From Verrucomicrobiia bacterium (lineage in GTDB: Bacteria; Verrucomicrobiota; Verrucomicrobiia; Limisphaerales; UBA8199): a stretch of 38,100 bases of DNA. The notes beneath the pieces were generated by a model, which saw only the letters and a program-made list of their open reading frames with translations, had not been told where the DNA came from and made no database searches. Location of the stretch: positions 1-38,100 of the forward strand of contig DASYZB010000095.1 of assembly GCA_035946615.1 (NCBI GenBank), in the 5' to 3' direction. The position numbers and the translations under genes are program-made. Numbering within the stretch: position 1 is the first letter of the stretch; each line of letters starts with the position of its first letter. Of this stretch, positions 1,617 through 38,100 are shown piece after piece.

Positions 1617-4022
1617 TTAAACGTGCATGCCGCCGGAGCGGCGTTGTTGGTGCTGCTGGCGTTTTTGTTCGAGCACCCGGCGCAGCTTTTGACCGGGTGT
1701 TTCCTTTACAACGGGCGCAATCTTTTCGGCCTGTTTGACCGGATCGGTTTGCTCGATGGCTTCTTTGTGGTCGAGACCGAACCAGCGGCGCACGTCCTCG
1801 ACGACTTGAGCCAGGCGTTGCACCGGAGCCAGGCGAGTCAGGCGCGTGGCCCGTGTCTGGCGCATAGGGCGCACGGCGCGAAAGTCCTTGCGGACGGCCA
1901 CCACCGGTGAAGGGGCTTTTTCTTCCAGCCGTTCCTTGCTGACGAAGCCGAGCTTGGCCAGGCCATCGCGGAGGGCCTGCAACTCAACAGCGGCCTTGCG
2001 TTCGTGCGAATCTGTGATGCGGCGGGCGAGCAAATCCGAATCATCAGTGAAGACGTGGCAGCGTTCCCGGCCACGAGAAATGGAGACGTAAAACTGCTCG
2101 CGGTTCACGGCCCCGAACGAACGTGACGAGGCAACCAACAGCACGTCGTCCACCGTCTTGCTCTGGGAACTATGCGACGTGACAGCGTAGCCGTGAGTGA
2201 AGGCGTTGAATCCGGCCGGGAGCGTGCGGCCATCGGCCAGGGCAATGCGGCCGTTTTGGATCTCCCGGACCTGGACGCGCTCGCCATTGATAAACTCTTT
2301 GCCGTGGTTGGCTTGGAGCAGCAGCCAGTCACCAGCGGCGACTTTCAACTCGCGGGCCTGGCCAACATCAAAGGAGGCAGCGGAGGTGCTGGGAATGAAA
2401 TCAATCTCGGTGCCATCAGCACGGCGAATGCGCAGCCCGTTCTCGATGGCCGCCACCACTTCAACGGTCTGGCCCCGATCAAAATGTTTGGTCTTTCTGA
2501 CAAGGCGCAGACGCTGACCAGGCTCGTACTGGCTCGCGTTTTTCTTTTGGGCTTCGGTCCAGGACAGCGAATCAAAGACGGGAACCGTCTGCTCATTTTG
2601 GCCGACCACGCCCTCAGCTTTCAGTGTGTCTCGAACCTTCTCAGTGACGGCCTCGATCTCAGTCCAGGTTGGCGAGACCAGGAGTGCGGAGCGGCCTTGC
2701 TTCGTGGCCGACAGATAGGCATCAGCGGCGCGTTGATAGAGCTGCCCATCATCGGTTAACGCTTCTGACACAGCGCCAAGTTCGAGCAGTTTGGCGAAGG
2801 CTTTATCGGTCTGCTTGGCGGCGGCCAGCTCGACCACCTGGCGGAACGCGGCGGGCTTCTGGCGGCGAATCGTCGTCAGTTCCTCGAAACGGTAGCCCGA
2901 GTACTGTTCGAGAATGCGGAGCGCATCGCCACGGGTGACGCTGGAGTGCTGGCCGGTGTCACCGCAGAGGATCACCCGGCAATCTTTCTTCCTGGCCAGT
3001 TCCAAGAGCCGGGCCATCTCCTCCAGGCCGACGGCTCCGGCCTCATCCAGCACAATCACCGACCGGGGCGAGAGCCTTGACCGTGTACGCAAATCGCCGT
3101 GGAACCGTTGCAGCGTCACGGCATCTTCCAACCCGTCCCGGCGCAGCGTGTCGGCGGCGGAAGCAGTGGGCGCACAAAAGACGGCCTCGAAACCTTGTCG
3201 GTGGAGCATGCGGGTTAGTTCGACCAGGGCGGTGCTTTTGCCCGAACCAGCCAGGCCGCGGAATCCGGTCACGCGGTCTGGACTGGTCAGCACATGAGCC
3301 AACGCCTTGCGCTGGTCCTGGCCGAGATGGGAAGCGGGTTGGTAATGGCGGGTGATGGGAGCAACGGCCTCGATGCCGGCGTTGACCGTGTGGATCAGGG
3401 CAAGCTCGCGACGGAGAATCTCCCGCGTCGAAAACTCAGAGCCAACGCGGACCAGGCTGTCGTCAGTGGCGAGTTTTTTCTTTAGCTGCTGCAAGTTAAG
3501 TTGCCCGCGACCTTTGACCAAGGCGGCCTCCAAAATCCGATGCTCCGGCGCGACGGAGTTACGCTCGAAGACGTGATCCAAACCATGCTCGACGGCTTCG
3601 TTCGTTGTCACCCGTTGCGCGAAATCTTGCGGTTGACCGTTGGCAGCGGCGACCACTTTGTGGAGCGCCCGTTTTTCAAAAAAGCCGATCTCGCCAAGTT
3701 GCTGTTTGCGCACCTGTTCATCGGTTGCGCCCTTCAATTTTTTGGGCCGGGTCTGGTGGACGACGTGGGCGACTTCATCCCGGGTGAGCTTGCGACCGAG
3801 GCGCTGTTCCTCCTTGGCAACGGCGATATCCCGTTCCTTGGAACGTTTGGAAAACCGTTCGATCAACTCCGGTTCGACGCCCTCGATCTCGAAGGCCGGG
3901 CCGGTCTGGCGAATCTTATAGCCGATGCCTTGCAGCCGTTTGACCAGTTCGTTGCGATAGACGGCAGTACCGTAATGAATGGCGTCGAACATGCCGGAGG
4001 TTTGCAGCGCCTTCCAACTCAA
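1617..4022 (-). CDS. MobF-family conjugative relaxase/helicase, N-terminally truncated
   Basis: The 801 residues match the C-terminal part of TrwC/TraA-like relaxases. The protein begins in the middle of the relaxase domain ('SWKALQTSGMFDAIHYGTAVYRNEL', then 'GYKIRQTGPAFEIEGV'), continues through a linker, and has an AAA helicase of the RecD/TraI type with Walker A 'GLAGSGKST' near residue 257, Walker B-like 'VIVLDEAGAV', and 'YVSISRGRE' near the C-terminus. The catalytic tyrosines and HUH metal site, which lie in the first 170 or so residues of the family, are absent. The only start is a TTG, and six codons upstream an in-frame TGA (minus-strand codon at 4041-4043) closes the frame. The missing part is replaced by Rhs DNA, so this is a recombination remnant. 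It cannot nick DNA as it stands, though a helicase could still be made. Confidence 0.85.
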   Translation of the reverse strand: MSWKALQTSGMFDAIHYGTAVYRNELVKRLQGIGYKIRQTGPAFEIEGVEPELIERFSKRSKERDIAVAKEEQRLGRKLTRDEVAHVVHQTRPKKLKGATDEQVRKQQLGEIGFFEKRALHKVVAAANGQPQDFAQRVTTNEAVEHGLDHVFERNSVAPEHRILEAALVKGRGQLNLQQLKKKLATDDSLVRVGSEFSTREILRRELALIHTVNAGIEAVAPITRHYQPASHLGQDQRKALAHVLTSPDRVTGFRGLAGSGKSTALVELTRMLHRQGFEAVFCAPTASAADTLRRDGLEDAVTLQRFHGDLRTRSRLSPRSVIVLDEAGAVGLEEMARLLELARKKDCRVILCGDTGQHSSVTRGDALRILEQYSGYRFEELTTIRRQKPAAFRQVVELAAAKQTDKAFAKLLELGAVSEALTDDGQLYQRAADAYLSATKQGRSALLVSPTWTEIEAVTEKVRDTLKAEGVVGQNEQTVPVFDSLSWTEAQKKNASQYEPGQRLRLVRKTKHFDRGQTVEVVAAIENGLRIRRADGTEIDFIPSTSAASFDVGQARELKVAAGDWLLLQANHGKEFINGERVQVREIQNGRIALADGRTLPAGFNAFTHGYAVTSHSSQSKTVDDVLLVASSRSFGAVNREQFYVSISRGRERCHVFTDDSDLLARRITDSHERKAAVELQALRDGLAKLGFVSKERLEEKAPSPVVAVRKDFRAVRPMRQTRATRLTRLAPVQRLAQVVEDVRRWFGLDHKEAIEQTDPVKQAEKIAPVVKETPGQKLRRVLEQKRQQHQQRRSGGMHV

Positions 4023-4255: not shown

Positions 4256-5971
4256 GTGAAGTTTGGGTACGACCCGCTGACCAACATGGTTGACGGCCTG
4301 GGCACGACCGCCTATGGTTACACTGCGGCCGGGCAGCTCCTCACCGAAGACGGCCCGTTTGCCAGCGATACGGTGACCAACACGTATTCCAACCGCCAGC
4401 GCGTGGCCCTGGGCCTGCAACAGCCCACCGGCTCATGGACCAACGCCTTCGCTTACGACGCCGCCCGCCGCATGACCAATGTGGTTTCTCCCGCCGGCCC
4501 CTTTGCATACCAATACCTCGCCAAATCCGGTTTGAGCCCGCGGCTGGTGGCCCGGCTGTCCCTGCCCAACACGGCGTACATCACCAACCAGTACGACGGC
4601 GTTTCCCGGCTCACGGAAACGCTGCTCAACAACAGCGCCAACAGCGCACTGGACTCGGCCCTGTACGGCTACAATCCGGCCTCTCAGCGGACAACGTTCA
4701 CCAACGCGGCGGGCACTTATGTCACCTATTCTTACGACCCGCTGGGCCAGGTGAAGGTGGCGTCCAGTTCCTCGAGCAGCGAGGACGTGGGTTACGCCTA
4801 CGACGCGGCATGGAACATGAGTTACAAGACCAACAATGGCGTGGCAAACGCCTTCACGGTCAACAACCTCAACGAGCTGACGCAATATATCGTAAATTTC
4901 TCCTACGACGCCAACGGGAACATGATCACCAACAACGGTTACATGGTCTATGCCTACGATGACGAGAACCGTCTGACCATGATGACTGACGAGGTGTATC
5001 ACAGTTACCAGACGGAATTTGACTATGATGGCCTGGGGCGGCTCCGCAGGCGCATCGAATACACCTGGGTAGTCAACAGCAAGACGGGGATTGGGTCCTG
5101 GGTGGGAAGCAGCACCGTTCAGTACATTTACGATGGCAACCGGGTCATCCAGGAGCGCGATGGAGGCGGCAACCCGCTAGTCAGCTACACCCGCGGCCCC
5201 GACCTCAGTGGGACAATGGAGGGCGCCGGCGGCATCGGCGGCCTGCTCGCCCGCTCCGACGGCTACACCTCCGGCAACTGGACCAACCACAATTATTACC
5301 ACGCCGACGGGCTGGGGAACATCACGTATCTGATTGATTCCAACCAGTCCATGACGGGAACGTACCGGTATGACCCCTTCAGCAACACGCTCTCATCCAG
5401 CGGAACGCTTTCGAGCGCGAACGTGTACCGCTTTTCGAGCAAGGAAATCCACGTCAATAGCGGGTTTTACTATTTCCTCTATCGGTTCTATGTTCCCGGT
5501 CTGCAGAGATGGCTAAATCGCGACCCGATTCGACAAAGAGCGTCCCTGAATGTCTACGCCATGGTTTACAACAACACCACAGAATACGTAGACCCTTTCG
5601 GGCTGGATATCTACGGAAACCCACTGTTCCCTGGCCCCGTTACCCTCTGGCCAGCACCACCATCGCAGCCATCTGAGCCAATATGGCCGCCCCCGACCAC
5701 CCTCTGGCCATCTCAGCCGCCAGGTCAGCCTCAGCCCATAGGACCAATCACGCTCCCGCCCTCCTCTATTACATTTTGTCTCATCTCGCCACCGCCACCG
5801 TCCTTCCCCTTGCCTCCTTGGTTGCCTCCGCGCCTTTTACCCCCGTGGCCGCTTCCATGGCCCTTCCCACCCGGAACCGTCCTCAATCCCGGATTTCCGC
5901 CTGACTTCCCCTTACCAAGCCGCCCTGGGAAAGGAGGGCCTATTGGGGTTTCAATTGGATGGCAATTCTAG
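4256..5971 (+). CDS. Rhs/YD-repeat protein with RHS-associated core and proline-rich tip (5' truncated)
   Basis: The 571 residues contain many YD-type repeats such as 'YGYTAAGQLLTEDG', 'YSYDPLGQVKVASS', 'FSYDANGNMITNNG' and 'YAYDDENRLTMM'. These are followed by the RHS core at about residues 365-424 ('YRYDPFSNT', 'FYVPGLQRWLNRDPI') and 'YVDPFGLD'. The tip, about residues 445-571, is strongly proline-rich with repeated 'LWP' and 'PPP' units and carries no toxin motif I can name. YD repeats form the hollow shell of Rhs/Tc toxins that encloses the C-terminal cargo. A full Rhs protein is usually more than 1000 residues and has a signal or PAAR-type N-terminus. Here the frame is broken just upstream (see 4061-4255), so the GTG at 4256 is only the first available codon. 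The gene is probably an orphan 3' module. A small lipoprotein gene follows after 12 nt. Confidence 0.8.
   Translation: MKFGYDPLTNMVDGLGTTAYGYTAAGQLLTEDGPFASDTVTNTYSNRQRVALGLQQPTGSWTNAFAYDAARRMTNVVSPAGPFAYQYLAKSGLSPRLVARLSLPNTAYITNQYDGVSRLTETLLNNSANSALDSALYGYNPASQRTTFTNAAGTYVTYSYDPLGQVKVASSSSSSEDVGYAYDAAWNMSYKTNNGVANAFTVNNLNELTQYIVNFSYDANGNMITNNGYMVYAYDDENRLTMMTDEVYHSYQTEFDYDGLGRLRRRIEYTWVVNSKTGIGSWVGSSTVQYIYDGNRVIQERDGGGNPLVSYTRGPDLSGTMEGAGGIGGLLARSDGYTSGNWTNHNYYHADGLGNITYLIDSNQSMTGTYRYDPFSNTLSSSGTLSSANVYRFSSKEIHVNSGFYYFLYRFYVPGLQRWLNRDPIRQRASLNVYAMVYNNTTEYVDPFGLDIYGNPLFPGPVTLWPAPPSQPSEPIWPPPTTLWPSQPPGQPQPIGPITLPPSSITFCLISPPPPSFPLPPWLPPRLLPPWPLPWPFPPGTVLNPGFPPDFPLPSRPGKGGPIGVSIGWQF
4373..4411 (+). 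repeat. Rhs internal repeat, copy 1 (39 bp identical to 7212-7250)
   Basis: This 39-base block, encoding 'VTNTYSNRQRVAL', is identical to 7212-7250. It sits in a longer region (about 4274-4411 versus 7113-7250) of roughly 90 percent identity by eye. At the second copy the similarity ends abruptly after this block. Confidence 0.85.
5420..5512 (+). repeat. Rhs core repeat, copy 2
   Basis: Partner of 119-211 with one mismatch over 93 bases. It lies exactly before the switch from conserved core to variable tip, which is where homologous recombination exchanges Rhs tips. Confidence 0.9.
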
Positions 5972-27895: not shown

Positions 27896-29854
27896 ATGAA
27901 GGCGCAGAACGCTGTCCCGCAGGGAACGGGACGGAAAGCGGGTAGGACGCGGGGTGTAGTTTCGCCCAAGGAGATACACCAGCCGCGGCGCCTTCCCATT
28001 GGCGCCGAAGTCGTGGCGGGAGGCGGGACGCATTTTCGTGTTTGGGCGCCAAAGCATCGGAAGATGATGTTGCAGCTTTGTGATCGATTGGACTTTCCTG
28101 CTCGCGCGCTTCGAGAGGTTGAGATGGAATCTGAGGCCGGTGGTTACTTTTCCGGGTTTGTAGCCGAGGCCCATCCGGGGGTGTTCTATAAGTTTAAACC
28201 GGGAGCGGGATCGTTTTCGGACCCGGCTTCTCGTTTTCAGCCCAATGGACCGCATGGCCCCTCAGAGGTTGTCGATCCGTTTCAGTTCCGCTGGCGTGAC
28301 GGCGAGTGGCGTGGGGTCGAGCGGCCAGGCCAAGTCATCTATGAACTTCACATTGGCACATTCACCCCGGAGGGGACCTGGGCGGCGGCGGCAGAGCAAT
28401 TACCGGAATTAGCGCGCCTGGGCGTTACCGTGATCGAGCTGATGCCCGTAGCCGATTTCCCGGGTCAATTTGGCTGGGGATATGATGGGGTGAGTTTGTT
28501 TGCTCCGACACGCCTTTATGGACGGCCAGATGATTTGCGGGCTTTTATTGATCAGGCGCATCGGGCCGGCTTGGGTGTTATTCTTGATGTCGTCTATAAC
28601 CATCTCGGGCCGGATGGTAATTATTTGAAGCAATTCTCAGAGGACTATTTTACCGATCGTTACCGAAATGAGTGGGGGCAGGCGATCAACTTTGATGGTC
28701 CTCAGAGCGGACCGGTCCGGGAGTTTTTCACTGCCAACGCCGCGTATTGGATTGAGGAATTCCACCTGGACGGCTTGCGGCTGGATGCGACGCAGCAAAT
28801 CTTCGACGCATCGCCTAATCACATTCTTTCGCTGATTTCGAGGCGAGTCCGTGAGGCCGCCCAAGGAAAGGCGGTTTATTTGGCTGCCGAGAATGAGAGC
28901 CAGGAGACAAGGCTGGCGCGGCCATTTGAGGCAGGGGGTTATGGGCTGGATGCATTATGGAACGATGATTTTCACCACACGGCGCGCGTCGCGCTGACCG
29001 GGCACAACGAGGCCTATTACGGCGACTACAAGGGCAGCCCGCAGGAACTCATTTCGGCGGTAAAGCGGGGCTTTCTTTACCAAGGCCAATGGTTTTGCTG
29101 GCAAAAAAAACGGCGCGGAAGCCCGACGTTCGGGCTGGCGCCGGAACAGTTCATCAATTATTTGCAGAACCACGATCAAGTGGCGAATTCGTTGCGCGGG
29201 TTGCGCATGCACCAAATAGGAGGCGCGAATCGATGCAAGGCGCTGACGGCGCTGCTGCTGCTGGGGCCTGGAACACCCTTACTATTTCAGGGCCAGGAGT
29301 TCTGGGCGTCGGCTCCTTTCTTATTTTTTGCCGACCACAATCCCGAGCTGGCGCGGTTGGTGAGGCAAGGCCGGCATGAGTTCCTGAGGCAATTCTCCAG
29401 CATTGCCTCGTCCGAAAGCGAGGTGCATCTCGCGGACCCGAGCTCCGTTAAGACCTTTGAGTCCTGCAAACTGGATTTTTCGGAACGGGAACGGCACCGC
29501 CACATCTACAAGATGCACCATGACCTGTTGAAGCTGCGGCGCGAGGATGAGGTCTTTAAAGAGCCGCGGGCAGGGGCTGTCGATGGGGCTGTCCTTGGGG
29601 CCGATGCGATGGTGCTTCGGTTTTTTGGCAAGAGCGGCCAGGACAGGCTGCTGTTGGTCAATTTGGGTGTTGATCTGCAATTGAGCCCGGCGCCGGAGCC
29701 GCTGCTTGCGCCAGTGGCAGGCAGTGCCTGGACGCTGAAATGGTCCAGTGACGCTCCGTGTTACGGCGGACGGGGCATTACGCCCTTGGAGAAGGAGGGA
29801 ATCTGGATGGTGCCGGGGCATGCGACGGTGGTGCTTGAACCGGCGCAAGTGTGA
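27896..29854 (+). CDS. treZ: Malto-oligosyltrehalose trehalohydrolase
   Basis: TreZ (family 13) releases trehalose from maltooligosyltrehalose made by TreY. The 652-residue protein has an early-set beta-domain ('PIGAEVVAGGGTHFRVWAPK', residues 36-55), then the catalytic barrel: 'GQVIYELHIGTFTPEGTWAA', 'GVTVIELMPVADFPGQFGWG', 'VILDVVYNHLGPDGNYL', nucleophile D297 ('LRLDATQQI'), acid/base E332 ('LAAENES') and D427 in 'NHDQVAN'. The C-terminal beta-domain ends 'GHATVVLEPAQV'. The first 35 residues are basic and extra to the family, so translation might start later. It is followed by a debranching-type gene and lies opposite treY, completing the TreY/TreZ pathway. Confidence 0.93.
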   Translation: MKAQNAVPQGTGRKAGRTRGVVSPKEIHQPRRLPIGAEVVAGGGTHFRVWAPKHRKMMLQLCDRLDFPARALREVEMESEAGGYFSGFVAEAHPGVFYKFKPGAGSFSDPASRFQPNGPHGPSEVVDPFQFRWRDGEWRGVERPGQVIYELHIGTFTPEGTWAAAAEQLPELARLGVTVIELMPVADFPGQFGWGYDGVSLFAPTRLYGRPDDLRAFIDQAHRAGLGVILDVVYNHLGPDGNYLKQFSEDYFTDRYRNEWGQAINFDGPQSGPVREFFTANAAYWIEEFHLDGLRLDATQQIFDASPNHILSLISRRVREAAQGKAVYLAAENESQETRLARPFEAGGYGLDALWNDDFHHTARVALTGHNEAYYGDYKGSPQELISAVKRGFLYQGQWFCWQKKRRGSPTFGLAPEQFINYLQNHDQVANSLRGLRMHQIGGANRCKALTALLLLGPGTPLLFQGQEFWASAPFLFFADHNPELARLVRQGRHEFLRQFSSIASSESEVHLADPSSVKTFESCKLDFSERERHRHIYKMHHDLLKLRREDEVFKEPRAGAVDGAVLGADAMVLRFFGKSGQDRLLLVNLGVDLQLSPAPEPLLAPVAGSAWTLKWSSDAPCYGGRGITPLEKEGIWMVPGHATVVLEPAQV

Positions 29855-29900
29855 AAGGGACATTGCGCGGGATTCAACCTCAGCAGCAGAACGGGTATCC

Positions 29901-31937
29901 ATGGAAACACTAATCCGCAGGATTGATTTGACGCAGGCGCAGGGAGAGGTCGCCCGCCAGCTCTTGCACCGTGAATGGCTGGCGACGAACGGACTGGGCG
30001 GCTATGCCTCGGGAACCATCTCGGGCACCGTGACCTGGCGTTATCATGGGCTGCTCATTGCGGCGTTGCCGGCGCCATTTGGCCGCATGGTCATGCTCAA
30101 TCATTTGGCTGAATCGATCCGCTTTCCAGATGGCCGCAGGTTGCAAATAGGCGGTGAGGAATCAGGGCAGCCTGAGGAGGGACGGTCTTTGCCGCATTTT
30201 ATCACTGAATTTCGACTCGAAAATGGCCTGCCCATCTGGCACTACGAAGTCGAGGGCATCATTCTCGAGAAGCATGTTCTCTTCCTTTATGGACAGAACA
30301 CCGTTCACGTGAATTATCATTTGTTGTCCGCCCAGGAGGATGTGCAACTGGAGCTGCGGCCCTCGATACATTTCCGCAGCCACGAACAGGCCGTCGATGC
30401 GGGCCGCCTGGATGGCTATCGGTTCAGTGTCAGTGGCGGCGAATACGAAGTGACCCTCGAAGACTTCCCGCCACGTTTGCGAATGGTGCTGTGGGCGGAC
30501 CGTTCGGCTTTCACTTATGATGGAGGGACACGGCGCGAAATTCATTATCAAAAGGAGGCCGAGCGCGGTTGTCAGGCGCGGGGCTTGTTGTGGAGTCCGG
30601 GCTATTTCAGCGCGACGCTGCACGCCCGCCGGGACGCAACGCTCATTGCGTCCACGGAGTGGTGGAGCACGATGCTGGCCCTGACCCCTCAGGAGGCTGT
30701 GGGATTCTATCACGACCGGCACCGGCGGCTGGTTGCGTGTTCTGAGGCCGCGGCGCAAAGTTCCCCAGCCGCCGACCTGGTCCTGGCAGCCGACCAATTC
30801 CTGATTACGCCGGCAGGGCGCATCCAGGATGCGGCGCGGGCACATGCGGCGGGTGACGAGGTGCGAACGGTGATAGCAGGTTATCACTGGTTCACAGATT
30901 GGGGCCGGGACACTATGATTAGCCTCGAGGGCCTGACGCTGACCACCAGGCGCTTTACCGAAGCAGGCTGGCTTCTGCGCACTTTCGCGCATTATGTCCG
31001 GGATGGCCTCATTCCCAACCTCTTTCCAGAAGGCAAGAACGAGGGCCTCTATCATACCGCGGACGCCACGCTGTGGTTTTTCCACGCGCTGAGCCGCTAT
31101 TTGGCCGTGACTCAGGACCGGGGCACGCTGCGGCTGATTTTGCCCAAGCTGCGGGCTATAATCGAGCATCACCTCCACGGCACGAAATTCGGGATACAGG
31201 CGGATGCGAAGGATGGCCTGCTACGCCAAGGGGCTGCCGGTTACCAACTGACCTGGATGGACGCGAAGGTGGAGGATTGGGTGGTCACTCCCCGGCGCGG
31301 GAAAGCCGTTGAAATCAACGGGCTGTGGTACAATGCCCTGTGTTTGATGGAGGATTGGCTGCGGGCAGAGGAGGGAGAAAAGGCGGCTGAAGCGATGGCT
31401 GCCCGGGCTCGCCAGGCAAGGGAATCCTTCAACCGCAGGTTTTGGTACCCGCAAGGCAATTATTTGTACGACGTGGTAGATGGAGAACAAGGGGATGACA
31501 ATGCCTTCCGGCCCAATCAGCTCCTGGCATTTTCGCTCGAACACCCTGTTTTGGATAAGCAGTATTGGAAACCTGTGCTCGAACAGGTCCGCGAACGGTT
31601 GTTGACACCCGTCGGGTTGCGTTCATTGAGCCGCGATCATCCGGACTATAAAGCGAAGTACTTCGGCGACCTTCGGGCGCGCGACGCCGCTTACCACCAG
31701 GGCACGGTCTGGGCCTGGTTGATGGGACCATTCATTGACGCGTGGTTGAAGGTCCATCCCGAGGACCGCTCCGGCGCGCGAAAATTCCTGGAGGGGTTCA
31801 TTCCGCACTTGAACGAGGGGTGCATTGGCTCGATTAATGAGATATTCGACGCCGAACCGCCCTTTACCCCGCGAGGCTGCATCACCCAGGCCTGGAGCGT
31901 CGCGGAGGTCTTGCGGGCATGGGTCAAGACGCAGTAA
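29901..31937 (+). CDS. Amylo-alpha-1,6-glucosidase / glycogen debranching enzyme-like protein
   Basis: A 678-residue protein. Residues 18-290 form the N-terminal debranching-enzyme domain ('LLHREWLATNGLGGYASGTI', 'TWRYHGLLIAALPAPFGRMV'), and 320-678 the (alpha/alpha)6 barrel with 'AGYHWFTDWGRDTMISLEGL', 'GLIPNLFPEGKNEGLYHTAD', 'LTWMDAKVEDWVVTPRRGKA', 'EINGLWYNAL', 'LRSLSRDHPDYKAKYFG' and 'AYHQGTVWAWLMGPFIDAWL'. This is the archaeal/bacterial debranching type (family 133-like), which removes alpha-1,6 branches. The start at 29901 is taken because the family begins there; the longer open frame reaches back into treZ. It is 46 nt after treZ on the same strand. It ends 20 nt from the convergent treY stop. 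Confidence 0.9.
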   Translation: METLIRRIDLTQAQGEVARQLLHREWLATNGLGGYASGTISGTVTWRYHGLLIAALPAPFGRMVMLNHLAESIRFPDGRRLQIGGEESGQPEEGRSLPHFITEFRLENGLPIWHYEVEGIILEKHVLFLYGQNTVHVNYHLLSAQEDVQLELRPSIHFRSHEQAVDAGRLDGYRFSVSGGEYEVTLEDFPPRLRMVLWADRSAFTYDGGTRREIHYQKEAERGCQARGLLWSPGYFSATLHARRDATLIASTEWWSTMLALTPQEAVGFYHDRHRRLVACSEAAAQSSPAADLVLAADQFLITPAGRIQDAARAHAAGDEVRTVIAGYHWFTDWGRDTMISLEGLTLTTRRFTEAGWLLRTFAHYVRDGLIPNLFPEGKNEGLYHTADATLWFFHALSRYLAVTQDRGTLRLILPKLRAIIEHHLHGTKFGIQADAKDGLLRQGAAGYQLTWMDAKVEDWVVTPRRGKAVEINGLWYNALCLMEDWLRAEEGEKAAEAMAARARQARESFNRRFWYPQGNYLYDVVDGEQGDDNAFRPNQLLAFSLEHPVLDKQYWKPVLEQVRERLLTPVGLRSLSRDHPDYKAKYFGDLRARDAAYHQGTVWAWLMGPFIDAWLKVHPEDRSGARKFLEGFIPHLNEGCIGSINEIFDAEPPFTPRGCITQAWSVAEVLRAWVKTQ

Positions 31938-31957
31938 GCCTGTTCCAAGGTGAGGCG

Positions 31958-34900
31958 TTACGACTCCGTCAGCACCAGCAGGCTCACAGGAAAGGAACGA
32001 AGGATTTCGGCCAAGGGCAAGGCCTTGCCCGGAGGGTTGACGGTGAGCCGCTCTTCCGTCAGCACATTCCGATATTGTTGACCAGTTTTCGCCGCGGGCA
32101 GAATAAGCTGGGTGTTGTGCCAGGTCTCTTTGCCCAAAGGGGCGCGCTCGACACCAGCCACGAGAGTATGGACAAGGCGCGGAACGACGGAGAGGCAGGT
32201 CTGGTTCTCAAACACGCGCGCAGAGGCGCAGACATGCTCGCCGGCGGGACCGGTTGCGTTCAGCGGAAGATAGTCACCCTTTTGAAAAAGCTGCGGATGT
32301 TCGCGCCGGAATTTGAGGGCGCGCCAAGTCAGGTGGAGTTTGATTTGCCCGCTTCGCCAGTTGCGCAACAGCCCGTTTAAAAGGGCTAGTTGATCGGCTC
32401 GCGAACCGGCCCACTGGCTCTTTAGCTCTGCCAGCATTTGCCGGCGCCTCGCGAAATCCACCGGCCCGCGGTTGTCGGGATCGACCAGGTTCAAATCCCA
32501 TAATTCGGCGCCCTGATAAAAATCGGGCACGCCGGGAGAAGTGATTTTAATCAGGAGCTGGCTAAGGGAGTTAAACTGGCCAAAGAATGCGACCTTGCGT
32601 TGAAACGAGATAAAGTTCTCGAGGAACTGTTTCGAGAAGGACTCGTCGAGGAGTTTCTGGATGAAAATGGTTATGGCCGATTCGTAGGCGGGGTCGGGGT
32701 CGGTCCAGGAGGTGTGAGTTTTGGCCTCCTTGAGGGCTTTGAGCATATAAGAGGTTACCCGCTGACGAAAGGAGGCGAGCGCGTCGAGGCCGGTTTCGGT
32801 CGGCCATGCCCCGAGGAGGGTTTGGTACAGCAAGTATTCGTCATTGGCATCAGGCGCCATTACGCCACGAGCGGCGGTCTTATGTCTCCCATTCATCTTG
32901 CGCCATCGCTGGAGGGCTTGCCGCCATCGTTTGGGCATTTCGGAAAGGACGCTGATTCGGGCGCGAAGGTCTTCACCGCGTTTGGTGTCATGGGTGGCGG
33001 TGGCCAGGAGGGAATTGGGCCAGTGGGCGCGTTGGGAGTCCAACCAGGCTTGAAAATCCTTGAAGCTGATTCCGAAACTGGAAGGGTCGCCGCCCACGTC
33101 GTTTAACGAAACGAGCCGGTTGTACTTGTAAAACGCAGTGTCCTCGAGGCCCTTGGCCATCACGGGGCCGGTAAGCTGTTGGAATTTCAGCACCAACTCG
33201 CGGCAGAGTTCGTTTCCTCGCTCATCGCAATCCTCAGGGGTTTCGAGCAGCAGGAGGTTGCGGATAAATTCCAGAACAGCTTTATTGATGCCGGGGTTGC
33301 GTTGCCCGGCCAGGCCGGAGGCTTCAAGGACGTAATCTGTCTCAGGCTCGGAGAGTCTGGTAGATGTTTCGTCAGCATAAGTACGATAAACGGGAAAGGA
33401 CGCGATGATAGCGGACAAGACAGTCTCGAGTTGCCGGAGGGTAAAATCCTGGCCATAACGGGTCTGGGCCGCTATTCGCTTGAGACGGCCAGCTAGCGCG
33501 CGAAGTTCCCCTGAAAAAGCGCTTTCGAGAATTTTCTTTTTGCACTTGTAAACGAGGGTTTTGAAATCAGTCTCACAACCGGTAAACTCACGGTAGATTT
33601 GGTCAAAGGCGGATTGATTTGCGGTGCTGACAAAGAGGGCATTAACCCGGTTAAGAAAATCATACCCGGTTGTCCCATCGACAGGCCAATATTGCGGCAA
33701 GGGCTCGTCACCGGTCAGGATTTTCTCGACGACGATGTAGAGAGGGGCGGCGCTGGGTTCGGGCGAGGCGTTGGCGCGGGCAGTGTCCTTCTGAGAGGCA
33801 AGGCTGATTTGCTTTGAAAGTGATGCGCGAATGAGCGATGCGCCCGCCTGCATGCGTTGAAGATAAGTTTTTGGGTCCCAAAGTCCGTCGGGATGGTCTA
33901 TGCGCAACCCGGTAATCCGGCCATCGCGGAGCATCTCGAAAATGAGCCGATGTGTGGCGTGGAATACGTCGGGACGCTCGACGCGCAAGGAGACCAGTTG
34001 GGTCACATCGAAGAACCGGCGATAATTGATTTCCTCGGGAGCAATGCGCCAAAAGGCAAGGCGATAGTGTTGTTTCTGCAAAAGGGCATGCAGCGAATCA
34101 AACGAATGCGGCTTGCCGGAAGCGCCATTGAATTGCTTGAGGGCTTTGGCGAGGCACTCGCGCAGGTGCGCTCGATTTGCAATAAGCGCATAAGTTGCTG
34201 AGGGTTGGCCAGGAGAGGAGCCAGAGCTGGATTGGGGCTGCCGCAAGCTCTTAATCAGGAGTTCGAGGTCACGACGCGCTGCGCTGTTCGGTGTTCGAGT
34301 TGAGCAAACCCGAAGCATCTCTTGGAGCAAGCAGATATAGGAAGGCGGACACAACGGGAACCAGCGCTCGAAATAGCTCACCACAAAACCGCGCTGGTCA
34401 AAAGCGACCTGAAGCTTGCCGGCTTCGAGGACTTTACTGTAGTGGTCTTCGAGAACAGGGAGCAGGACTTTATTGGTCAAGCCCGGGCGCTCGCTCTGCC
34501 AATCGATATCAAACCAGGAGGCGTAAGAGGAAGCCGGCCCGTTTTCCAGGACGTCGTGCCACCAGGGATTCGACGAATCGGCGCCCATATGATTAGGGAC
34601 CGTGTCCAGAAGCAGTCCCAGCCCAAGCTGGCGCAAGCGCGCCGCGAACCGCTCGAAGTCGGATGCAGTTCCGAGGTCGGGATTCAACTGGTCGTAAGAG
34701 CAGACATCATAGCCATGGGCGCTTTGAGGAGCGGCTTTGAAAAGAGGCGAGCAGTAGCAGTCGGAAACTCCTAGCTCGGCCAGAAAGTCGGCCACATCGG
34801 TGGCCTGGGCGAAGGTAAACTGACCGTTGAACTGCAAGCGATAGGTGGCAAGCGGTATCCGTTTGCCGAGCGCCCGTGACGTGGCCTGTGCCGGCGCAGC

Positions 34901-34981
34901 CTCGACAGCAGGGACATTAGTGCAAGGCCTTATCGGGCGCCTGACGCGGACGAGTGGAGGGCCTGGAGTTCTGGAGGGCAT
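31958..34981 (-). CDS. treY: Malto-oligosyltrehalose synthase
   Basis: TreY (family 13) isomerises the reducing-end alpha-1,4 bond of maltodextrin to alpha,alpha-1,1, giving the substrate of TreZ. The 1007-residue protein has the family opening at about residue 45 ('IPLATYRLQFNGQFTFAQAT'), 'LGVSDCYCSPLFKAAPQSAH', 'DTVPNHMG', nucleophile D362 ('GLRIDHPDGLWDP'), acid/base E419 ('IVVEKILTGDEPLP'), 'TGYDFLNRVNALFV', 'GLEDTAFYKYNRLVSLNDVG', 'ATATHDTKRGEDLRARI' and 'PGVPDFYQGAELWDLNLVDP'. It is somewhat longer than common TreY proteins, with a proline-rich N-terminal extension. The start codon follows the TAA of the upstream family 57 gene directly (TAAATG), showing an operon. Confidence 0.94.
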   Translation of the reverse strand: MPSRTPGPPLVRVRRPIRPCTNVPAVEAAPAQATSRALGKRIPLATYRLQFNGQFTFAQATDVADFLAELGVSDCYCSPLFKAAPQSAHGYDVCSYDQLNPDLGTASDFERFAARLRQLGLGLLLDTVPNHMGADSSNPWWHDVLENGPASSYASWFDIDWQSERPGLTNKVLLPVLEDHYSKVLEAGKLQVAFDQRGFVVSYFERWFPLCPPSYICLLQEMLRVCSTRTPNSAARRDLELLIKSLRQPQSSSGSSPGQPSATYALIANRAHLRECLAKALKQFNGASGKPHSFDSLHALLQKQHYRLAFWRIAPEEINYRRFFDVTQLVSLRVERPDVFHATHRLIFEMLRDGRITGLRIDHPDGLWDPKTYLQRMQAGASLIRASLSKQISLASQKDTARANASPEPSAAPLYIVVEKILTGDEPLPQYWPVDGTTGYDFLNRVNALFVSTANQSAFDQIYREFTGCETDFKTLVYKCKKKILESAFSGELRALAGRLKRIAAQTRYGQDFTLRQLETVLSAIIASFPVYRTYADETSTRLSEPETDYVLEASGLAGQRNPGINKAVLEFIRNLLLLETPEDCDERGNELCRELVLKFQQLTGPVMAKGLEDTAFYKYNRLVSLNDVGGDPSSFGISFKDFQAWLDSQRAHWPNSLLATATHDTKRGEDLRARISVLSEMPKRWRQALQRWRKMNGRHKTAARGVMAPDANDEYLLYQTLLGAWPTETGLDALASFRQRVTSYMLKALKEAKTHTSWTDPDPAYESAITIFIQKLLDESFSKQFLENFISFQRKVAFFGQFNSLSQLLIKITSPGVPDFYQGAELWDLNLVDPDNRGPVDFARRRQMLAELKSQWAGSRADQLALLNGLLRNWRSGQIKLHLTWRALKFRREHPQLFQKGDYLPLNATGPAGEHVCASARVFENQTCLSVVPRLVHTLVAGVERAPLGKETWHNTQLILPAAKTGQQYRNVLTEERLTVNPPGKALPLAEILRSFPVSLLVLTES

Positions 34982-37447
34982 TTAAGCCGCCATTTGGACT
35001 GCGGGGGTAGCCGGCTGCAGTGATTTAGTAGCAAAGCCAAGCGTATCGCCCAAGGCCAGGAATTGAGTGACCCATGTCTGCGCGGCTTCTTCTCGCTGGT
35101 TGGCGAGCTGCTGGAAATCGGGCAGAATGTTTTGCGCCATCTCCCAATAGGTATTTTGGACTTTCCACAGATTCAGCCCCAAGGGCAGCGGCATGACGAG
35201 TTGGGCGAACTGTTGCAGAGCCCGCATCTGGTCGATATCGTCTGGGTGATCTGCCAGGAGTTGAGTCATTTGTTCGAGGCGATTTTTGACAGCAAAGCTG
35301 ATATGGGCATTGAGCACTCCGCCGTTCCGGGCCAGGGCCTCGTGAAGCAGGGAGGTCAAACGCTCGATATTCAGGGGCTCGCTTTGAGTCTGGCGGCGGA
35401 TGTCACTCTGCAGGACCGAATTGGCAATGGCATCGAGCCCTTCGGGCAACGGCGCGCCGGCGCTTTGCAGGAACTTCATCAGGGGTTCGTACCGCTCGGC
35501 GATCAGACGGAAGCGGCCTTCGAGGTCTTCCCTTGTGCTGGCGAGGATTTCACCCAGAATCCGGCGCTGTTCGTCTTTGAATAACGACCGCAGCGAGTAG
35601 GAGGCCTGGCCAAAATGGCGGTCGATCAGCCGGATGGTCTCGGGGAAATCAGCGCGTTGAAAGGCCGCCTGGACATCGCGAAGAATAGCCGCATAGCCCT
35701 CTTCGGAATCAAAATAACGGACCCCGCCCGTCAGATTATGTTCGCCCAAATAAAGAATGCAGTAAATGAGCGCCTGGGATTCCCGTGTGATTTCGGAAAT
35801 GACCCGGGTGCGCCCGATAGCGAGGCGGGTTTTGCCCGAAGAAAAGAGCTGACGATGCTGGTCTTCGAACTGGAAGGAAAAGATGTGGGTTTCTTCGCCA
35901 TATTGCTCGAAGATGGAACTGATGGCGTAATGGGCGGCGGCCTTGGGCCAATCGATCATGGCCGGCTTGACGAATTTCGCGTAGATTTCCCGGCCATTAA
36001 CGTGCTCGGGGAGGTTGCTTTTGGCCCCTTCAAAACGCTCTAGAAAACCGGCTTCGAGGTCTTTGTCAAAAAGCTCGCGTGCCAGTTGCAAGGACCGAGC
36101 GGCGTATTGGACGACCTGCACGCTTTCGATGCCGGAGATTTCGTCAAAAAACCAGCCGCAACTGGTGTACATGAGCAGGGCGTGGCGTTGGAGTTCCATG
36201 AGCTTTAGGACGGAGATTTTTTCGTCGTCCTGCAATGGATGGGTCCAATGCTCTGAGAAGAATTTTTCGCGGGTTGAGTCGGAGCGATCGAGGATAACCG
36301 AGATATAATCGTTTCGGGCCTGCCATGGGTCGCGGAGGAATTCCTTGGCCTTTTGCTCGAAGAGCGTGGCCAGCTCGTCGCGCAACCAATCCAGGGAGTT
36401 GCGCAAAGGGGTGCGCCAGGCCTGGTTCCACCCGGGGTGGCCCCCGCTGTTGCAGCCGCAGTCCTCCATCCATCGGCGGACGCCGTGCGTGCAGCTCCAG
36501 GCGCTCTTTTCATGAATCTGGACTTCGTGTGTTGGGGGGTGTTTCTCGAGGTATTCCGCGTAATTGGTAAGCCTTGCCAGGTTGTTGTCCTCGATAAAGC
36601 GGAGGGCATAAGCCAAAGCCATCTCTCCATGGCGGTGATGATGGCCGTAGGATTCGCCGTCGGTCGCAATGTGGACGAGCTGGTCCCACTGGCGTCGATC
36701 ATCGAAGGCCGACATGAGCCGGTGAGCCAAGCGCTCGCCGCTGGTTAAAAGCTTCTCGAAGGCGACCGCTTGGGAGACCGGGGCATCATAGAAGAAAACC
36801 GAAATCGAGCGGCCCGAGCGCAGGCGGACGAGGTAGGGCCGTGTCGGATCGATGCGCCCGCCATCGACATCGCGATAGCTTCTTTTTCCTATTTCGCGGG
36901 TTCGGCTGGCCTGGAAGGGCGAGAGTATTGTGAACTTAATTCCCAACTCGGCGAGGGTTTCAAGGGTTGGCCCATCTGCAGCGGTTTCAGAGAGCCACAT
37001 CCCTTCGGGTTGGCGGCCAAAACGCGACTCGAAATCGCGAATACCCCAAAGGACCTGGGTAAACCGGTCCCGGTTGTTGGCCAGCGGCAGTATCATATGA
37101 TTATAGACCTGCGCCAGGGCCGAGCCATGCCCGGAGAAGCGCTGCTGGCTGAGCTTGTCGGCCTGGAGGATTGCCTCGTGCATTTGCGGCCAGGCCTGTT
37201 TCATCCAGGCCAGCAACGTCGGGCCGAAGTTGAAGCTGATTTTTGAGTAGTTGCTGGTGATGGCCGCGATGCGGCCTTCACCGTCCAGGATGCGCGCGGT
37301 GGCGTTGGGGGCATAGCATTCCAAGGTGACTCGCTCGTTCCAGTCATGGCAGGGCGCCGCTGAGTCCTGAACTTCGACCGATTCGAGCCAGGGATTTTCG
37401 CGAGGGGGTTGGTAGAAATGGCCGTGAATGCAGATGAGTTTTTCCAT
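34982..37447 (-). CDS. Glycoside hydrolase family 57 protein with DUF3536
   Basis: An 821-residue protein. The ATG at 37447 is chosen because the family opening 'MEKLICIHGHFYQPPRENPW' begins there; a TTG nine codons earlier overlaps the preceding gene. Residues 1-310 are a family 57 barrel, with nucleophile-like E154 ('GMWLSETAAD') and acid-like D263 ('IATDGESYGHHHRHGE'). From about residue 300 to 570 lies the DUF3536 region ('HEKSAWSCTHGVRRWMEDCG', 'RNDYISVILDRS', 'LLMYTSCGWFFDEISGIESV'). The rest is helical. Family 57 contains alpha-amylases, 4-alpha-glucanotransferases and branching enzymes; the DUF3536 type is often next to treY and treZ but its reaction is unproven. It abuts treY and is 4 nt from the preceding gene. 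Confidence 0.88.
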   Translation of the reverse strand: MEKLICIHGHFYQPPRENPWLESVEVQDSAAPCHDWNERVTLECYAPNATARILDGEGRIAAITSNYSKISFNFGPTLLAWMKQAWPQMHEAILQADKLSQQRFSGHGSALAQVYNHMILPLANNRDRFTQVLWGIRDFESRFGRQPEGMWLSETAADGPTLETLAELGIKFTILSPFQASRTREIGKRSYRDVDGGRIDPTRPYLVRLRSGRSISVFFYDAPVSQAVAFEKLLTSGERLAHRLMSAFDDRRQWDQLVHIATDGESYGHHHRHGEMALAYALRFIEDNNLARLTNYAEYLEKHPPTHEVQIHEKSAWSCTHGVRRWMEDCGCNSGGHPGWNQAWRTPLRNSLDWLRDELATLFEQKAKEFLRDPWQARNDYISVILDRSDSTREKFFSEHWTHPLQDDEKISVLKLMELQRHALLMYTSCGWFFDEISGIESVQVVQYAARSLQLARELFDKDLEAGFLERFEGAKSNLPEHVNGREIYAKFVKPAMIDWPKAAAHYAISSIFEQYGEETHIFSFQFEDQHRQLFSSGKTRLAIGRTRVISEITRESQALIYCILYLGEHNLTGGVRYFDSEEGYAAILRDVQAAFQRADFPETIRLIDRHFGQASYSLRSLFKDEQRRILGEILASTREDLEGRFRLIAERYEPLMKFLQSAGAPLPEGLDAIANSVLQSDIRRQTQSEPLNIERLTSLLHEALARNGGVLNAHISFAVKNRLEQMTQLLADHPDDIDQMRALQQFAQLVMPLPLGLNLWKVQNTYWEMAQNILPDFQQLANQREEAAQTWVTQFLALGDTLGFATKSLQPATPAVQMAA

Positions 37448-37451
37448 AAGG

Positions 37452-38024
37452 TTAATCTTCGTGCTTGAAAACAAGGAGCGCCAGAGGTGGCAGGGTCAGG
37501 CTTAGGGTATAGGGCAAGCCATGAGAGCTGAAAGGTGATGTGTTGAGCCCGCCAAAATTTCCCTGCCCGCTCCCGCCATACTCTTTGGCGTCGCTGTTGA
37601 GAATTTCGCGCCAACTGCCGCTGCGCCGGACACCGACCCGGAAATTGCGCCGGACCACTGGAGTGAAATTGGCAACGACCAGCAAGACCTCGCGCCGTTG
37701 CGGGTCGCGGCGGAGCCAACTGAGGGTGCTCTGCTCGGCATCGTGGGGCTCAACCCATTCGAAGCCGACGGGAAGGCTATCGCTGCGATGGAGGGCTTGT
37801 TCGCGCCGATACAGGCAATTGAGATCGCCCACAAGCCTCAGAACCCCGCTCTGGAAAGGAAAAGCTAACAGGTGCCAGTCGAGGCTCGCATCGGAATGCC
37901 AGGATTCCCATTGGGCAAACTCGGCGCCCATGAACAGCAGCTTCTTGCCCGGGACTAGATAGAGCCTGTCCCAAAAGGGGGAAGCGTCGGTGCCTGCGTT
38001 GCGCCAGTGCTGCGCGGAGGGCAT
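37452..38024 (-). CDS. glgB: 1,4-alpha-glucan branching enzyme, C-terminal part (truncated or rearranged)
   Basis: The 190 residues match the end of GlgB: 'PGKKLLFMGAEFAQWESWHS', 'ASLDWHLLAFPFQSGVLRLV', 'DLNCLYRREQALHRSD', 'GFEWVEPHDAEQSTLSWLRR', 'VVANFTPVVRRNFRVGV', 'EILNSDAKEYGGSGQGNFGG' and 'SLTLPPLALLVFKHED'. In normal GlgB the line before PGKKLLFMG contains 'SHDEVVHGK', about 40 residues upstream. None of the three frames up to the window edge shows it. The frame used here stays open to base 38100 and reads 'GRPKNIYNRRFWAQVPNLAD', so the gene may be a fusion or lack its catalytic barrel. It overlaps or abuts the family 57 gene, in the same operon. The true start lies at 38024 or outside the window. 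Confidence 0.7.
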   Translation of the reverse strand: MPSAQHWRNAGTDASPFWDRLYLVPGKKLLFMGAEFAQWESWHSDASLDWHLLAFPFQSGVLRLVGDLNCLYRREQALHRSDSLPVGFEWVEPHDAEQSTLSWLRRDPQRREVLLVVANFTPVVRRNFRVGVRRSGSWREILNSDAKEYGGSGQGNFGGLNTSPFSSHGLPYTLSLTLPPLALLVFKHED

Positions 38025-38100
38025 TAAATCGGCTAGATTGGGGACTTGCGCCCAAAATCGTCGATTATAGATGTTTTTTGGCCGCCCGACGGCGGGTCGT

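What the first reader, a model, noticed from the sequence alone, without database searches (positions are those of the whole stretch)
27896..38024. Two-sided alpha-glucan to trehalose cluster with a family 57/DUF3536 enzyme
TreZ and a debranching-type enzyme face TreY, a family 57/DUF3536 protein and a branching-enzyme piece, all within 10 kb and with minimal gaps. TreY and TreZ need linear ends of glucan, which a debranching enzyme would supply. The family 57/DUF3536 protein's reaction is not established, and its direct coupling to treY (TAAATG) suggests that it feeds or edits the same substrate.
Basis: partly seen in the sequence, partly recalled or inferred. Interest (0 to 1): 0.5.

Follow-up and report, generated by a model that had tools for sequence, protein, structure and literature searches.

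The report
Glycogen-to-trehalose cluster with unusual amylase
A bacterial gene cluster looks built to turn stored glycogen into the protective sugar trehalose, and an amylase-like enzyme of a poorly studied family appears to do the job that a debranching enzyme normally does there.

Summary
The cluster is real: treZ and a GH133 gene (+ strand) converge on treY, a GH57/DUF3536 gene and the end of glgB (- strand). The GH57-treY link is general: of 80 named DUF3536 loci from many phyla, 46 hold treY or treZ, 32 have treY next downstream on the same strand, and 2 encode a GH57-TreY fusion. DUF3536 tends to stand in for the debranching enzyme TreX/GlgX: in a 384-genome draw of the class, GlgX is in 0 of 6 treY genomes with DUF3536 and 50 of 54 without; across phyla the exclusion is weaker. 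The protein has a complete GH57 active site and fits the GH57 'non-specified amylases'. One homologue (PoGH57) was assayed: weak, trimming branches; its authors conclude 4-alpha-glucanotransferase. Most likely the enzyme cuts alpha-1,4 bonds in glycogen's outer chains and releases the linear, reducing-ended chains that TreY needs. The branching-enzyme piece is a glgB copy apparently split by a mobile element; an intact copy lies elsewhere. Activity on glycogen is inferred, not shown.

The parts
27896..29854 (+). treZ, malto-oligosyltrehalose trehalohydrolase
   Evidence: TIGR02402 602 bits over cut-off 538.8
29901..31937 (+). [quoted passage not shown] the open frame begins at 29748, ATG at 29901 preferred
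   Evidence: PF06202 419 bits, PF12439 194 bits, TIGR01561 388 bits over cut-off 364.15; start chosen from the sequence
31958..34981 (-). treY, malto-oligosyltrehalose synthase
   Evidence: TIGR02401 969 bits over cut-off 498.65
34982..37447 (-). GH57 + DUF3536 alpha-glucan-active enzyme, 821 aa; catalytic Glu154 and Asp263 (numbering from ATG 37447)
   Evidence: PF12055 398 bits, PF03065 69 bits; model pLDDT 91.8, GH57 fold Z about 27-31 over residues 1-461; both residues invariant in 87 sequences
37452..37953 (-). 3' part of glgB (branching enzyme), apparently split from its 5' part by a mobile element
   Evidence: PF02806 85.6 bits; 5' part on another contig, G000:C84
37954..38100 (-). end of a multi-copy mobile element inserted in glgB; 16-base terminal inverted repeat and 6-base target duplication shared with the other side on C84, both read by eye
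   Evidence: matches of 140-146 bases at 99% at ends of contigs C107, C147, C58; element ends and flanks

Best explanation
The cluster is a glycogen-to-trehalose unit in which a GH57/DUF3536 enzyme stands where TreX/GlgX normally stands. The GH57 enzyme cuts alpha-1,4 bonds in the outer chains of glycogen, mostly by hydrolysis with some chain transfer, and releases short linear malto-oligosaccharides that carry a free reducing end. [quoted passage not shown] GH133 removes the single alpha-1,6 glucoses left at trimmed branch points so that trimming can continue. Shown here: gene content, conserved order, fusion to TreY, near-exclusion with GlgX in one class, invariant catalytic residues and predicted fold. 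Inferred: the substrate, the bond cut and the products in this organism, and the part played by GH133.
For: (1) Order: in 80 named loci the next gene downstream on the same strand is treY in 32, the next gene upstream is treZ in 32 and glgB in 15. (2) Two GH57-DUF3536::TreY fusions, L075 (1821 aa, Chloroflexi MAG) and L094 (1827 aa, Planctomycetota MAG), both with full TreY (979.7 and 975.8 bits); in a midpoint-rooted FastTree tree their nearest relatives are unfused and the smallest clade with both has 61 of 87 leaves, so two separate fusions are likely (support values not looked at). (3) Exclusion with TreX: of 60 class genomes with TreY over cut-off, GlgX is over cut-off in 0 of 6 with DUF3536 and 50 of 54 without (Fisher p 4e-6; by family 0 of 6 against 16 of 17, p 7e-5) (recount). 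Same order: 0 of 5 against 2 of 2; family f4: the one DUF3536 genome (G008) lacks GlgX, the 11 others with TreY have it. In 19 of the 54 DUF3536-free genomes GlgX lies within 5 kb of treY. (4) Active site and fold. (5) Fingerprint of GH57 'non-specified amylases': Phe-Phe at what I take as the end of CSR-5 in 87 of 87 (rule from PMC6037648 section 10). (6) PoGH57, added after a branching enzyme, shortens branches longer than DP6 and yields linear DP3-4 chains (PMC11206854).
Against: PoGH57 activity was low (27.7 mU/mg on amylose, 4.2 on maltodextrin DP18) and its authors conclude 4-alpha-glucanotransferase. Exclusion with GlgX is not complete: G381 has both, and across phyla GlgX is over cut-off in 26 of 80 DUF3536 genomes (10 of 42, 16 of 38), with more just below it. 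No DUF3536-free control was run outside the class. TreY was found in the locus, fused, or elsewhere over cut-off in 57 of 80 named genomes; 19 tested genomes had none over cut-off and 4 were not tested, so the enzyme seems to work without TreY too. G360 and G377 have DUF3536 without TreY or GlgX over cut-off. In G453 and G539 DUF3536 lies on a contig other than treYZ. This genome has other debranching capacity (GH133 here and a 1547-aa GH13+GH133 protein on C136), so debranching as such is not missing.
Confidence: 0.55

Rival explanations
1. The enzyme is a 4-alpha-glucanotransferase that lengthens short malto-oligosaccharides (for example the maltose and maltotriose left over by TreZ) back into TreY substrates, rather than releasing chains from glycogen.
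For: The only published assay of a DUF3536 protein that I found concludes this (PMC11206854). The GH57 4-alpha-glucanotransferase of T. litoralis is among the structural matches (Z 28.5, 362 aligned, rmsd 3.2).
Against: Position 23 of the GH57 fingerprint is Lys in GH57 4-alpha-glucanotransferases (PMC6037648) but Ser or Thr in 87 of 87 DUF3536 proteins. A GH77 4-alpha-glucanotransferase gene sits in or beside several DUF3536 loci (L032, L033, L054, L061, L062, L070, L111, L112), so that activity would be redundant there. It does not explain the exclusion with GlgX. The same paper reports dominant hydrolysis on the branched substrate.
Confidence: 0.25
2. The enzyme hydrolyses alpha-1,6 branch links itself (amylopullulanase-like) and is a direct functional equivalent of TreX.
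For: The top structural rows are GH57 amylopullulanases (Aquifex Z 30.6, S. marinus Z 29.4), and the protein tends to be present where TreX is absent in the class. In the PoGH57 one-pot reaction the number of branches was lower with the GH57 enzyme present.
Against: Branching-enzyme, maltogenic-amylase and 4-alpha-glucanotransferase rows lie within about 2 Z units, so the fold does not decide. CSR-5 ends in Phe-Phe, not in the Trp-Trp described, 'not unambiguously', for amylopullulanases. [quoted passage not shown]
Confidence: 0.12
3. GH57/DUF3536 and GH133 form a split two-protein version of the eukaryotic debranching enzyme (transferase + amylo-alpha-1,6-glucosidase).
For: The two lie in one cluster here and in L101.
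Against: GH133 is a labelled neighbour in 1 of 80 named loci; a strong match is present in 23 of 52 DUF3536 genomes against 16 of 28 without. treZ-GH133 stays beside treY in G453 and G539, where DUF3536 is on another contig.
Confidence: 0.05
4. The enzyme is a second branching enzyme that edits glycogen structure for the GlgE pathway; adjacency to treY only reflects a common glycogen regulon.
For: glgB is directly upstream in the window and in 15 of 80 loci; TreS and GlgE genes are in 19 and 11 of 80 loci.
Against: The two GH57 branching-enzyme fingerprints HxHLP and ELF(Y)GHW (PMC11206854) are absent here (HGHFY, ESYGHH). The fusions found are to TreY.
Confidence: 0.03

Closest known systems
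treXYZ glycogen-to-trehalose operon (TreX/GlgX, TreY, TreZ)
   Same: TreY and TreZ present over curated cut-offs; an enzyme that opens the glucan is coupled to treY
   Different: No TreX/GlgX over cut-off in this genome; a GH57/DUF3536 protein takes the place beside treY
Pontibacter sp. SGAir0037 PoGH57 (PMC11206854)
   Same: A DUF3536-containing GH57 in a locus with treZ, treY, TreS, GlgE and a branching enzyme; HGHFY and ETYGHH motifs close to those here
   Different: Locus typed as a polysaccharide utilization locus with GH77 and GH97; discussed there as a glycogen-synthesis enzyme, not as a TreX substitute; its sequence was not compared here
GH57 'non-specified amylases' (Martinovicova and Janecek 2018, PMC6037648)
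   Same: Phe-Phe at the end of CSR-5, Ser/Thr at position 23, mean length 785 aa against 821 here
   Different: In that paper's main text 'DUF' and 'trehalose' occur 0 times; its one characterised member (Wang 2011) could not be read
GH57 4-alpha-glucanotransferase, branching enzyme, amylopullulanase, maltogenic amylase
   Same: Same barrel fold; catalytic Glu/Asp aligned with a GH57 branching enzyme
   Different: 11-19% identity; other fingerprints; an extra C-terminal part (about 490-821) for which no strong match was found
GH133 / archaeal-type glycogen debranching enzyme (TIGR01561)
   Same: P0004 over the curated cut-off
   Different: Paired with treZ in this lineage; not general to DUF3536 loci

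Membership tests
GH57 | Pfam GH57 domain match over cut-off | tested here: met
   PF03065 69.3 bits, cut-off 21.2
GH57 | GH57 barrel fold | tested here: met
   Predicted model, pLDDT 91.8; Z 27.1-30.6 to the 19 GH57 entries shown, aligned within residues 1-553, next family at 18.6
GH57 | Catalytic Glu (CSR-3) and Asp (CSR-4) | tested here: met
   Glu154 and Asp263 in 87 of 87 sequences; aligned with Glu183 and Asp354 of 3n8t (the second stretch a weak one; that these two are its catalytic pair is recalled)
GH57 non-specified amylases | Phe-Phe at positions 35-36 (end of CSR-5) | tested here: met
   Phe433-Phe434 in 87 of 87; rule from PMC6037648 section 10. That TSCGWFF is CSR-5 is my placement by likeness to motifs that I recall, not a residue-by-residue structural check
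GH57 non-specified amylases | Ser at position 23 | tested here: inconclusive
   Ser in 37 of 87 incl. this protein, Thr in 50
GH57 non-specified amylases | Clusters in a tree with the characterised member | not tested
GH57 4-alpha-glucanotransferase | Lys at position 23 | tested here: not met
   Ser/Thr in 87 of 87; position counted from the catalytic Asp as number 20
GH57 branching enzyme | HxHLP (CSR-1) and ELF(Y)GHW (CSR-4) | tested here: not met
   HGHFY and ESYGHH
GH57 amylopullulanase | Two Trp at positions 35-36 ('not unambiguously') | tested here: inconclusive
   Phe-Phe in 87 of 87, but the source calls the rule not unambiguous and the CSR-5 placement is mine
TreX/GlgX (TIGR02100) | Curated model match of the GH57 protein or of any protein in this genome | tested here: not met
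   P0001 has no TIGR02100 match at E 0.001; genome G000 best E 1.1e-16, none over cut-off; genome 96% complete
DUF3536 (PF12055) | Full-length profile match | tested here: met
   398 bits, profile 1-284 of 284
treXYZ pathway | TreY and TreZ over cut-off | tested here: met
   969 and 602 bits
treXYZ pathway | TreX present | tested here: not met
treXYZ pathway | Trehalose made from glycogen | not testable with these tools
   needs an assay
GH133 | GDE_N + GDE_C, TIGR01561 over cut-off | tested here: met
   388 bits, cut-off 364.15

The most novel reading that the evidence does not exclude
DUF3536-type GH57 enzymes are a widespread non-orthologous replacement of TreX: they open glycogen for TreY by cutting alpha-1,4 instead of alpha-1,6 bonds, so that trehalose can be made from glycogen without a debranching step, and in at least two lineages glycogen opening and the TreY reaction are carried on one polypeptide.
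Probability: 0.42. Interest if true: 0.6.

Novelty: new variant of a known kind. Interest (0 to 1): 0.45.

Why it matters
The route from glycogen to trehalose is described as needing the debranching enzyme TreX before TreY and TreZ (PMC11046441, passages). If a GH57 enzyme of uncertain reaction does this step in many phyla, a domain of unknown function gets a role, treYZ organisms without TreX are explained, and a natural GH57-TreY fusion becomes a one-protein candidate for making maltooligosyltrehalose from glycogen or starch. Each step is testable with four purified proteins.

Tried and rejected
Split eukaryote-like debranching enzyme (GH57 + GH133): tested by GH133 distribution and set aside as a general rule. 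The 28 DUF3536-free genomes of that call, of 54 on hand, were chosen, not random: the two of the same order, five of family f4, and 21 with the highest TreY scores.

DUF3536 in plasmids and in viral contigs: no match in the plasmid collection; in viral contigs, searched with this one protein only (finds close relatives), one stretch matched a pattern and was not confirmed.

C-terminal part 490-821 folded alone (pLDDT 93.5): Foldseek found nothing at E 0.001 or better; the second look gave one row at Z 8.7 over 97 residues of the helical part and the rest at 7.5 or less. A weak or missing match does not show a new fold.

Fold as a guide to the reaction: amylopullulanase, branching enzyme, maltogenic amylase and 4-alpha-glucanotransferase rows lie within about 2 Z units at their best, so it does not decide.

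A first clustering of neighbours by BLAST gave one cluster in which DUF3536 was joined to longer proteins, and mixed GH13 proteins; it was replaced by labelling against named query proteins. In that labelling L049 shows a 1522-aa open frame that overlaps treZ in another frame; it is not counted as a fusion. GH77 genes were not in the label set and are reported from single Pfam scans only, so their share of loci is not known.

The post hoc comparison inside named DUF3536 genomes (GlgX over cut-off in 11 of 46 with treY/treZ adjacent or fused, 9 of 15 with TreY only elsewhere, p 0.024; recount) was made after seeing the data; the other 19 of the 80 genomes had no TreY over cut-off (6 of them have GlgX) and were left out of it.

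The phylum draw (2 of 288) was too sparse to use and was replaced by the class draw.

Papers: PMC11206854 abstract and sections 2.1-2.3 read; PMC6037648 sections 5 and 10 read, other passages; PMC11046441, PMC9386147, PMC2700814, PMC5037290, PMC9582752 passages only; others seen only in search listings. No paper describing DUF3536 as a TreX substitute or a DUF3536-TreY fusion was noticed in the listings (open-licence PMC only, listings capped).
Full report
Observation. The window is the whole of contig C95 of a 5.6-Mb, 161-contig genome. The named relatives nearest to its DUF3536 protein are Verrucomicrobia MAGs (60-70% identity), so the organism is very probably a verrucomicrobial bacterium; this is inference. 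Spacing is tight: 46 nt, 20 nt between convergent stops, 0 nt between the DUF3536 stop and the treY ATG, and 4 nt between the glgB stop and the DUF3536 ATG (read).

The glgB piece. The last 147 bases of the window are not glgB. They are the end of a repeat found at 99% identity at the ends of three other contigs. The 5' part of a glgB lies at the start of contig C84 and runs into an element end with the matching inverted terminal repeat; the two flanks share 6 bases, and the empty site reads in frame by eye. The C84 part also changes frame near its base 1300. An intact glgB (952 bits, 775-aa frame) lies on C37. So the branching-enzyme piece is a split copy. The two contigs are not joined in the assembly, so the insertion is strongly suggested, not proven.

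The core of the cluster in relatives. treZ, then GH133, convergent with treY, recurs in G453, G539 and G381 of the same class (TreZ 62-63%, GH133 61-69% to the window). In G453 and G539 the DUF3536 gene is on another contig; in G381 DUF3536 and treY both run off contig ends. One more such treZ-GH133 pair, beside DUF3536, is in a Desulfomonilaceae MAG (L101: TreZ 60%, GH133 57%).

DUF3536 in general. In the class draw 9 of 384 genomes carry it. TreY is over cut-off in 60 of the 384: in 6 of the 9 with DUF3536 and 54 of the 375 without (p 0.0007). A seventh DUF3536 genome, G381, has a TreY fragment of 444.7 bits at a contig end; G360 and G377 have none over cut-off. In these 80 loci TreY is present or fused in 40, TreZ in 36, either in 46, GlgB in 29, TreS in 19, GlgE in 11, GH133 in 1, and 22 have none of these labels. 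Of the 55 loci with at least 2.5 kb on both sides, 33 have TreY or TreZ. The fullest common order is glgE-treS-glgB-treZ-DUF3536-treY (L056, L059). Two loci, from a Chloroflexi MAG and a Planctomycetota MAG, encode DUF3536 and TreY as one protein; the two are 56% identical over the DUF3536 part and fall apart in a FastTree tree. Counting genomes, TreY was found in the locus, fused, or elsewhere over cut-off in 57 of 80; 19 had none over cut-off and 4 were not tested.

Exclusion with TreX. Of the 60 class genomes with TreY over cut-off, GlgX/TreX is over cut-off in 0 of 6 with DUF3536 and 50 of 54 without (p 4e-6, recount 109). The four DUF3536-free exceptions are two 0.9-Mb genomes, one genome 73% complete, and one with a 553.7-bit match to profile positions 2-355 only. 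Counting families, 0 of 6 against 16 of 17 (p 7e-5); these tests take genomes or families as independent, which is only roughly true. In family f4, G008 has DUF3536 and no GlgX while the 11 others with TreY have GlgX and no DUF3536. G381 has both. In 19 of the 54 DUF3536-free genomes GlgX lies within 5 kb of treY. Across phyla the exclusion is weaker: GlgX is over cut-off in 10 of 42 and 16 of 38 named DUF3536 genomes, and several others lie just below the cut-off. There was no budget for a DUF3536-free control in those phyla.

The protein. The AlphaFold model is confident (pLDDT 91.8, pTM 0.89). Its N-terminal 460 or so residues match GH57 enzymes at Z 27-31, with the next family at 18.6. Glu154 and Asp263 are invariant in 87 sequences and align with Glu183 and Asp354 of the T. 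kodakarensis GH57 enzyme 3n8t (the second stretch weak); that these are its catalytic pair is recalled. The 2018 GH57 survey (PMC6037648, sections 5 and 10 read) describes a group of 170 'non-specified amylases', mean length 785 aa, with Phe-Phe at the end of CSR-5; all 87 sequences here have Phe-Phe at the motif that I take as CSR-5 (the placement is mine). Lys at position 23 (4-alpha-glucanotransferases) and the branching-enzyme motifs are absent. I therefore place DUF3536 proteins in or next to that group; the one characterised member could not be read.

What is known of the reaction. PoGH57 from Pontibacter, a DUF3536 protein in a locus with treZ, treY, TreS, GlgE, GH77 and a branching enzyme, was assayed in 2024 (PMC11206854). 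Activity was low. On a glucan first branched by the partner enzyme it produced linear DP3-4 chains and shortened branches longer than DP6; [quoted passage not shown] I read the trimming result as what a TreY feeder should do: TreY needs linear chains with a reducing end (PMC11046441 passages), and each hydrolytic cut makes one. This reading is mine.

Role of GH133. By established knowledge of GH133 it removes the last alpha-1,6 glucose of a trimmed branch. In this genome it can finish what the GH57 enzyme starts, but it is not tied to DUF3536 elsewhere: a strong match in 23 of 52 DUF3536 genomes and 16 of 28 DUF3536-free ones (strong means at least 200 bits in one stretch, or in two stretches of one frame of 1445-1494 aa that add up to it). 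The genome also has a 1547-aa protein with GH13, GDE_N and GDE_C matches (C136), GlgE with a TreS-like protein on C121 and a second TreS-like protein on C114 (by BLAST to labelled queries), so trehalose and glycogen can in principle be interconverted in both directions.

Verdict. Its view of the debranching enzyme as the supplier of chains is not supported. The substrate, bond and products of this protein remain inferred.

Noticed in passing
window 37954-38100 and G000:C84:1-1699: Multi-copy mobile element with a 16-base terminal inverted repeat (read by eye) apparently splits glgB; its ends lie at or near the ends of contigs C107, C147, C58, C122, C154. The C84 part of glgB also changes frame. 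The inside of the element was not recovered.
   Followed up: partly
L132 (G453:C59), L133 (G539:C23), L134 (G381:C8): treZ-GH133 convergent with treY is conserved, in two of three with DUF3536 on another contig, so the window seems to join two units: treZ-GH133 and glgB-DUF3536-treY.
   Followed up: yes
P0001 residues 490-821 of the ATG numbering (window 34982-35980 -): Confidently modelled C-terminal part (strands, then helices) with no significant Foldseek match in the PDB.
   Followed up: partly
L128 1192-5835 + (G000:C136): 1547-aa protein with a weak GH13 match, GDE_N and GDE_C: the domain order of the eukaryotic two-activity debranching enzyme (recalled), in a bacterium; frames of 1455-1516 aa with GDE_C matches also occur in G301, G316, G320, G399, G453, G539.
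   Followed up: partly
L035, L036 (G377, G360): Divergent DUF3536 proteins (43% identity) in genomes without TreY or GlgX over cut-off; in L035 next to a sensor kinase, an ABC transporter and a TPR gene; a possible other role.
   Followed up: partly
window 31958-34981: This TreY scores higher against a Chloroflexi MAG TreY (L045, 906 bits) than against TreY of two genomes of the same order (821 and 802 bits); possible transfer, not tested with a tree.
   Followed up: no
window 1617-4022 - and 4256-5971 +: A protein with TrwC relaxase and TraI-like helicase matches beside an RHS-repeat protein, over 20 kb from the cluster.
   Followed up: no
L130, L129 (G000:C121, C114): A GlgE-like gene followed by a TreS-like gene on C121 and a second TreS-like gene on C114.
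   Followed up: no
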